Source: Chloroflexota bacterium
GTDB taxonomy: Bacteria > Chloroflexota > UBA11872 > UBA12225 > JAJDUF01
Assembly: GCA_022826725.1 (NCBI GenBank)
Contig: JAJDUF010000022.1
Coordinates: 124,001-188,000, forward strand
Length of the DNA stretch: 64,000 nt
Direction: 5' to 3'
Position numbers and translations under genes: made by a program. How positions within the stretch are numbered: the first letter of the stretch is position 1; each line of letters begins with the position of its first letter. This document shows positions 59,965 through 61,275 of this stretch, in pieces. Below the pieces are notes generated by a model. That model was not told the DNA's origin. It saw only the letters and a list, made by a program, of their open reading frames with translations, and searched no databases.

Positions 59965-60057
59965 GATACTAACGGAGCACACATCTGGCCCCTCCCCCTC
60001 CTTGCCCGGGAGGGGAGCCATAGTCGCTGCATGGACTCCCCTTGTATCTTGGTTTTG

Positions 60058-60216
60058 GTGTCCCAACCACTGCGGTTGGGCGGATCGGGGTGCGGCAGAC
60101 CGATCTCCCCCTGGTCGCGGAAGGCCGTAGGGAAGCGCGGGTCGCCGCACCACCGCCGGAACGAGAGCCCGAACAGTTGCCAGGGCCAACCAAGCCCGCA
60201 TCATGCAAGGACGGGC
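60058..60216 (+). ncRNA. predicted IS110 bridge RNA
   Basis: 5' hairpin CCCAACC/GGTTGGG (60062-60080). The target loop has stem GGTGCGGC-a-GACC (60089-60101) with GGTC-GCCGCACC (60140-60151); its left strand holds CTCCCCC (60105-60111) and its right strand AGGGAAG (60129-60135). AGGGAAG is the exact complement of CTTCCCT in the occupied target. The donor loop has stem GCCCG/CGGGC (60167-60171, 60212-60216), left strand ACAGTTGCC (60173-60181) matching 8 of 9 bases of the element's right end plus core (ACAGTTGCT), and right strand ATGCAAG (60203-60209). That strand pairs with CTTGTAT at the left end with one G-T wobble. Small inner hairpins close both loops. Structure and guides are read from sequence; the function is inferred from IS110 biology. 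Confidence 0.75.
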
Positions 60217-60238
60217 CAATACGGGGCAGGAGGGAGCC

Positions 60239-61201
60239 ATGGAACCGGAAGCGCTCTATGTCGGCATCGACGTCGCCAAGGCTCAGTTGGACGTGGCCGT
60301 CCGGCCCACGAACGACCGTTGGGCGATCCCCCACCACGAGGCGGGCATCCGGCAACTGGTCGCCCGGCTGCAGGCCCTAGCACCGATTATCGTGGTGCTG
60401 GAGGCGTCGGGTGGCCTGGAACTGCCACTGGTAGCCGCCCTAGCCACCGCGGCGGTGCCGGTGGTCGTCGTCAACCCGCGTCAGGTCCGGGACTTCGCCC
60501 GGGCCACCGGGCAACTGGCCAAGACCGACGCGCTGGACGCGGCGATCCTGGCCCACTTCGCCGCGGCGGTCCACCCGCCGGTGCGCCCGCTGCGGGACGC
60601 CGAGACCCAGGCACTCCACGCCTTGGCCACCCGCCGGCACCAGGTGCTGACCATGCTGGTCGCGGAGCAGAACCGCCTCGGCACTGCCACCGCTGGCGTC
60701 CGCCCCCACATCGCGGCCCACATCGCCTGGCTGGAGCAGGAACTAGCCGACCTGGATCAGCAGCTGCGGCAGACGCTCCGGCAGAGTCCGGTGTGGCGTG
60801 CGCAGGACGCGCTGCTGCGCACGGTTCCCGGCGTGGGCCCCCAACTCTCGCTCACCCTGTTGGCCCATCTGCCGGAATTGGGCACCCTGGACCGCCGGCA
60901 GATCGCCGCCTTGGTAGGGGTGGCGCCCTTCAACCGCGACAGTGGCACGCTGCGGGGCAAACGCACGGTCTGGGGGGGCCGCGCGCGGGTGCGCGCCACC
61001 CTCTATATGGGCGCGTTGGTCGCCAGTCGCTACAATCCCGTGATCCGGGCGTTCTACCAGCGGCTGCTGGCGGCGGGCAAGCCGAAGAAGCTGGCGCTGA
61101 CGGCCTGCATGCGCAAGCTGCTGGTGATCCTCAACGCGATGCTGAAGCACGGCTCGCCCTGGTCCGACCGGTCCCCGCTGGTCGTCAGTCATTCCGCTTG
61201 A
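60239..61201 (+). CDS. IS110-family transposase (RuvC-like DEDD plus Ser)
   Basis: 320 residues. The N-terminal RuvC-like domain has Asp11 in [15 protein letters not shown], Glu55 in [13 protein letters not shown], and Asp97 and Asp100 in [15 protein letters not shown] coiled-coil region (about 150-190) follows. The C-terminal Tnp domain has [20 protein letters not shown] and the catalytic-type Ser235 in [20 protein letters not shown], then [19 protein letters not shown]. All the active-site residues known for the family are present, so it may be functional. ATG 60239 has CAGGAGGGA upstream. The TGA stop overlaps the TTGACT -35 box at the right end. Confidence 0.95.
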
Positions 61202-61216
61202 CTTTCAAGACAGTTG

Positions 61217-61275
61217 CTTCCCTGCGAGGGAAGGGGCCGGGGGTTAGGTCCGCCGGGGGGGTGAGGCACCCCCCT
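61217..61275 (+). repeat. right half of the family A repeat split by the IS, then a second partial copy
   Basis: CTTCCCTGCGAGGGAAGGGG, then CCGGGGGTTAGGTCC, then CGCCGGGGGGGTGAGG with a complementary CCCCCCTCAACC. It leads into the ribosome binding site of the NHL gene. Confidence 0.7.

What the first reader, a model, noticed from the sequence alone, without database searches (positions are those of the whole stretch)
60041..61218. IS110 element with a readable bridge RNA programmed to the genome's own palindromic repeat
The 196-nt left end folds into a 5' hairpin and two internal-loop hairpins. In the first, CTCCCCC and AGGGAAG lie on opposite loop strands; AGGGAAG is the exact complement of CTTCCCT in the target, and CTCCCC matches six contiguous bases of the left target. 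In the second, ACAGTTGCC matches 8 of 9 bases of the element's own right end plus core, and ATGCAAG pairs with CTTGTAT at the left end with one wobble. Two independent loops matching two independent DNA sites is unlikely by chance. IS110 elements are known to use such bridge RNAs to choose targets. From memory, the joined donor here (ACAGTTGCTTGTAT) resembles that of IS621. The novelty is a self-targeting relation with an interspersed repeat in this lineage.
Basis: partly seen in the sequence, partly recalled or inferred. Interest (0 to 1): 0.92.

Follow-up and report, generated by a model that had tools for sequence, protein, structure and literature searches.

The report
Jumping gene guided into host repeat
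This is a small RNA-guided jumping gene (an IS110-family insertion sequence) whose guide RNA matches a short palindromic repeat found about 80-90 times in its Chloroflexota host; the mechanism is already known from E. coli IS621, but this is an unusually well-supported natural example in a distant phylum.

Summary
The element is a 1,176-bp IS110-group insertion sequence with CT cores at 60041-60042 and 61217-61218 and an intact DEDD+Ser recombinase related to IS621 and ISCro4. A covariance model built without this sequence finds a bridge RNA at 60087-60218 (117 bits, E about 1e-24). The same model also finds the bridge RNA of an E. coli IS621-like element.

Across 67 homologues with distinct guides, target guides covary with insertion-site flanks (z = 15.5 left, 19.9 right) and the left donor guide covaries with the element's right end (z = 15.4). 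The window's guide matches its site at all 10 programmable positions; against 66 other sites the best is 7. The programmed 12-mer CTCCCCTTCCCT occurs 87 times in this genome, 76 in the sister species, and 0-13 in 30 other relatives.

In the sister species, four right ends and three left ends of near-identical copies sit at the same point of the same repeat. Other IS110 lineages there sit in a second repeat peculiar to the genus.

IS110 targeting of host palindromic repeats is already known (IS621, ISPa11, ISPpu9/10), so this is a new member of a known kind. Activity and RNA expression are untested.

The parts
60043..61218 (+). IS110-group insertion sequence (1,176 bp counting one CT core)
   Evidence: Pfam hits of its ORF; end motifs; homologous ends in about 100 loci
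60036..60042 (+). left target half: programmed positions -5..-1 (CTCCC, 60036-60040) plus core CT 60041-60042
   Evidence: matches LTG 5/5 at the covarying positions
61217..61233 (+). right target half: core CT + TCCCT, continuing into palindrome CTTCCCTGCGAGGGAAG of the host repeat
   Evidence: repeat census
60041..60047 (+). right donor (RD) CTTGTAT, left end of element
61210..61216 (+). left donor (LD) ACAGTTG, right end of element
60062..60080 (+). 5' stem-loop CCCAACC-ACTGC-GGTTGGG
   Evidence: sequence; not conserved in alignment, position as in IS621
60087..60218 (+). bridge RNA core (target-binding loop + donor-binding loop)
   Evidence: leave-one-out covariance model R1, 117.3 bits, E=1.1e-24; helix covariation
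60103..60111 (+). left target guide LTG (ATCTCCCCC)
   Evidence: covaries with left flank in 67 homologues
60129..60135 (+). right target guide RTG (AGGGAAG, complement of CTTCCCT)
   Evidence: covaries with right flank
60173..60181 (+). left donor guide LDG (ACAGTTGCC)
   Evidence: covaries with right end of element, z=15.4
60200..60209 (+). right donor guide RDG (AT...GCAAG, discontiguous)
   Evidence: conserved columns; two homologues change RD and RDG together, CTTA/TAAG
60239..61201 (+). recombinase ORF, 320 aa, DEDD D11/E55/D97/D100 and catalytic-type S235
   Evidence: Pfam PF01548 and PF02371; aligned to IS621 8wt6 and ISCro4 9t56; residue numbers
61198..61203 (+). TTGACT, -35 of the promoter that would form across the RE-LE circle junction (17 bp spacing)
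60045..60050 (+). TATCTT, -10 of the circle-junction promoter
8695..8706 (+). empty copy of the programmed 12-mer in the host repeat
34269..34280 (+). empty copy of the programmed 12-mer in the host repeat
49349..49360 (-). programmed 12-mer in a truncated (half-palindrome) repeat copy

Best explanation
It is an IS110-group (IS621-like) insertion sequence. By family knowledge, excision as a circle joins right and left ends, which here would assemble a sigma70-type promoter (TTGACT-17-TATCTT) that transcribes a bridge RNA from the left end. The donor-binding loop of that RNA pairs with the element's own joined ends. The target-binding loop pairs with CTCCC-CT-TCCCT, and the recombinase exchanges strands at the CT core. 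Because that 12-mer is the left arm of a genus-specific interspersed palindromic repeat, the element has about 80-90 interchangeable landing sites. Shown here: anatomy, conserved RNA structure, guide-target and guide-donor covariation, repeat abundance, repeated insertions at the same repeat position. Inferred: transcription, circle formation, catalysis, current activity.
For: Recombinase domains and IS621/ISCro4 relationship. Bridge RNA found by a model built without this sequence; the model also finds an E. coli IS621-like bridge RNA at E=2.9e-6. Helices: 96.7% of cells paired, 102 compensatory cells vs 22.5 in shuffles. LTG-LT z=15.5, RTG-RT z=19.9 over 67 distinct guides, lost on sliding by one base. 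LDG-LD z=15.4, with 14 homologues showing the same variant on both sides. Query guide 10/10 at own site, at most 7/10 elsewhere. Programmed 12-mer 87x in genome, 76x in sister, control pattern 0-1 in these two. Sister species: four right ends and three left ends of near-identical copies at the same repeat position, outer flanks different. A -35 match at 17-18 bp junction spacing in 53 of 67 homologues.
Against: LTG mismatches at -7, -6 and the second core base (though -7/-6 hardly covary in this family, and about 40% of the family lack T at that core position). Only one full copy in this genome, so no proof of recent activity here. No RNA data. Sister-species ends lie at contig ends, so left and right ends cannot be paired copy by copy, and the orthologous locus there breaks at the repeat.
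Confidence: 0.94

Rival explanations
1. The recombinase recognises the hairpin of the palindromic repeat (structure-specific targeting); complementarity with the loop is coincidental.
For: The target here is a perfect 10-bp-stem palindrome; some other homologues also sit at palindromes (stem of 7 or more in 11/66 vs 5% of control windows).
Against: Most homologues with the same architecture sit at non-palindromic sites that match their own guides. Insertion is always at the left-arm CT in one orientation, and one sister-species copy (L162) sits at a site whose second arm is degraded.
Confidence: 0.03
2. Sister-species copies share flanks because repeat+IS units were duplicated or recombined, not because of repeated guided insertion.
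For: Repeats and IS copies are both substrates for homologous recombination; sister assembly is fragmented (340 contigs).
Against: Sequence outside the roughly 45-bp repeat differs at each of four right ends and three left ends.
Confidence: 0.05
3. Guide and repeat match because the guide was captured from the repeat or converted by it after insertion (guide follows site), rather than the guide choosing the site.
For: Natural guide replacement clearly happens: homologues 70-82% identical have unrelated guides.
Against: The three sister-species left ends carry the same guide as this element but lie at different genomic places; experimentally, guides direct insertion in IS621 (PMC11208160).
Confidence: 0.05

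Closest known systems
IS621 (E. coli; IS110 group), PMC11208160 and PMC11208158
   Same: Pfam PF01548+PF02371 recombinase with DEDD and Ser; left-end bridge RNA with target loop then donor loop; CT core; discontiguous RDG; reconstituted junction promoter; inserts in a genome-wide palindromic repeat (REP). Joined donor ACAGTTGCTTGTAT here vs ACAGTATCTTGTAT in an E. coli IS621-like element.
   Different: Different phylum, unrelated repeat and guide. Covarying right-target pairing reaches +5 (7 bp with the core) rather than the 4-bp RTG of wild-type IS621; covarying left positions are mainly -5..-1.
ISPa11, ISPpu9, ISPpu10, ISRm19 (REP-inserting IS110-family elements), PMC1525189
   Same: All surveyed copies are inserted into the host's palindromic repeat; ISPpu9 and ISPpu10 enter at one fixed point with a 2-bp direct repeat.
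   Different: Hosts are Pseudomonas and Sinorhizobium. In the sister genome here, different IS110 lineages occupy two different repeat families.
ISEc11/ISXne4 (IS1111 family), PMC11187229
   Same: Natural re-direction of the guide between close relatives.
   Different: IS1111 elements carry the guide RNA at the other end.

Membership tests
[quoted passage not shown]
   PF01548 E=7.8e-24, PF02371 E=7.2e-20; D11, E55, D97, D100, S235 align with IS621/ISCro4 residues
IS110 family, IS110 group (IS621-like) | Left non-coding end much longer than right, no long inverted repeats | tested here: met
   196 nt left end before the ATG vs 15 nt between stop and the right CT core
IS110 family, IS110 group (IS621-like) | Bridge RNA in left end with target-binding then donor-binding loop | tested here: met
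   leave-one-out model E=1.1e-24; compensatory changes
IS110 family, IS110 group (IS621-like) | Target loop covaries with insertion site | tested here: met
   z=15.5 and 19.9
IS110 family, IS110 group (IS621-like) | Donor loop covaries with element ends | tested here: met
   LDG-LD z=15.4; RDG-RD nearly invariant, two paired changes
IS110 family, IS110 group (IS621-like) | Promoter reconstituted at circle junction | tested here: met
   TTGACT-17-TATCTT; 53/67 homologues; sequence test only
IS110 family, IS110 group (IS621-like) | RNA expressed, bound by recombinase, guided recombination | not testable with these tools
   needs RNA-seq and assays
IS1111 group | 7-17 bp subterminal inverted repeats, guide RNA in right end | tested here: not met
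   right end only 15 nt before the core, RNA in left end
REP/RAYT repeat system (for the target repeat) | Y1 (TnpA_REP) transposase in the genome | tested here: not met
   PF01797 absent in this and the sister genome, control rings in E. coli

The most novel reading that the evidence does not exclude
In this Chloroflexota genus, IS110 guides have evolved to track the genus-specific repeats: separate lineages are each programmed to one of at least two abundant palindromic repeat families, making high-copy neutral landing pads a general, repeatedly selected strategy of bridge-RNA elements.
Probability: 0.5. Interest if true: 0.55.

Novelty: new member of a known kind. Interest (0 to 1): 0.42.

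Why it matters
It is an independent natural case, in an under-studied phylum, of a bridge RNA programmed to a host repeat, with a multi-copy sister genome and dozens of naturally reprogrammed relatives. It gives a ready set of guide-target pairs (covarying positions -5..-1 and +1..+5) for testing guide rules, and makes the question whether guides evolve towards high-copy landing sites directly testable. It also adds a compact (320 aa) recombinase orthologue with a defined target and donor.

Tried and rejected
Single-sequence folding was uninformative (z=0.27). Rfam has no bridge RNA family matching. A first palindrome pattern with the wrong spacer (4 N) gave zero hits in both genus members and was corrected to 3 N. 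Narrow repeat searches at first made the repeat look rare; the flank-based search showed otherwise. The idea that targeting of palindromes is general in the family is weak: 17% vs 5% at stem of 7 or more. The idea that a RAYT spreads the repeat is not supported. The orthologous empty site in the sister species could not be read because its contig ends inside the repeat.

Full report
Observation. The element lies between CT cores at 60041-60042 and 61217-61218, in the spacer between an M19 dipeptidase gene and an NHL beta-propeller gene. Its 320-aa ORF (60239-61201) has both IS110 domains. Its closest solved relatives are the ISCro4 and IS621 recombinases (E about 1e-42), and the catalytic-type residues D11, E55, D97, D100 and S235 align. 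The own genome holds one full copy plus a relic whose matching 247-bp part (bridge RNA and start of the ORF) is 83% identical.

Bridge RNA. Folding the left end alone proves nothing, so I used relatives: 80 loci from public genomes and many from class- and phylum-level relatives. On a 42-sequence alignment the four helices of the two loops pair in 96.7% of cells, with 102 compensatory cells against 22.5 in shuffles and 3-17 in slid controls. A covariance model built from 22 relatives, without this sequence, finds 60087-60218 at 117 bits, E=1.1e-24. The next hit in the window has E=3.2. The same model finds the bridge RNA of an E. coli IS621-like element (E=2.9e-6). The joined donor of that element, ACAGTATCTTGTAT, is 12/14 identical to the one here.

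Guides. Fixed alignment columns were used as LTG and RTG, and sites were read from the element ends. Over 67 elements with distinct guides, the left guide matches its own site 4.34/7 vs 2.26 permuted (z=15.5). The right guide matches 4.25/5 vs 1.60 (z=19.9). Covarying positions are -5..-1 and +1..+5; a slide of one base abolishes the match. The window's element matches at all ten. The donor side covaries too: 14 homologues with a variant right end carry the same variant in the LDG (z=15.4). The permutation does not model the phylogeny of the elements, but relatives sharing guides raise the permuted mean rather than the difference.

Target repeat. The occupied site belongs to a family with consensus GGACTCCCCTTCCCTGCCAGGGAAGGGGCCGGGGGTTAGGTCC. 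This genome has 44 perfect palindromes, the sister species 40, one same-order genome 6, and 31 other relatives none. The programmed 12-mer occurs 87 and 76 times in the two genus members, 0-13 elsewhere, control 0-3. Three empty or partial copies lie in this window.

Sister species. Four right ends and three left ends of near-identical copies all abut the same point of this repeat in the same orientation, with different outer flanks. The same guide is present in the left ends. More divergent IS110 elements there (L163, L164, L165, L167) abut a second repeat, ACCCTnnCCCTCCCCC, with matching or near-matching right guides where readable. That repeat occurs 41 and 109 times in the two genomes and at most twice in 20 other relatives. 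One divergent element (L166) shares the right guide AGGGAAG and right site of the first repeat, but its left flank is not the repeat.

Mechanism. As in IS621 (PMC11208160, PMC11208158), the circle junction would place TTGACT 17 bp from TATCTT, just upstream of the RNA; 53 of 67 homologues keep a comparable -35 at 17-18 bp. Transcription, circle formation and catalysis are inferred from the family, not shown.

Novelty. IS110 insertion into host palindromic repeats is known (IS621; ISPa11, ISPpu9/10, ISRm19 in PMC1525189), and natural guide re-direction is reported (PMC11187229). What is new is the lineage, the repeats, and the within-genus partition of elements between two repeat families. I therefore rate it a new member of a known kind, of moderate interest.

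Noticed in passing
window 3105-3120(-), 25374-25389(+), 49292-49307(-), 52086-52101(-): Copies of a second interspersed repeat, ACCCTnnCCCTCCCCC, 41 in this genome and 109 in the sister, the target of other IS110 lineages there.
   Followed up: partly
G000 and G001 whole genomes: Neither genome has a Y1/TnpA_REP (RAYT) transposase, so what disperses these palindromic repeats is unexplained.
   Followed up: partly
G000:C4:230138-230384 (L190/L201): Relic of a related IS110: bridge RNA still hit by the model (75 bits) with the same RTG AGGGAAG; 5' end of ORF only.
   Followed up: partly
L004, L111, L072; L005, L168, L012, L099, L101: Homologues elsewhere sit in other widespread-looking motifs: CCGTTCGCC|CTGAGCCTGTCGAAGGGT and CCCTCACCCnnGCC|CTCTCCC, the latter also in Anaeromyxobacter.
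   Followed up: no
L037, L038, L039 (OX638345.1): Three identical-guide copies in one Dehalococcoidia chromosome sit in the same approx. 30-nt repeat TTAGCGTACGATTCTGCCCC|CTACCGGAATC.
   Followed up: no
window 59990-60016: A separate GC-rich near-palindrome CCCCTCCCCCTCCTTGCCCGGGAGGGG lies just upstream of the occupied repeat.
   Followed up: no
L162 (G001:C310) and window 49349: Repeat copies with the left arm but a degraded right arm; the L162 copy is nonetheless an insertion site, suggesting the hairpin is not needed.
   Followed up: partly
window 71-141 and 21647-21718: Two tRNA genes by Rfam.
   Followed up: no
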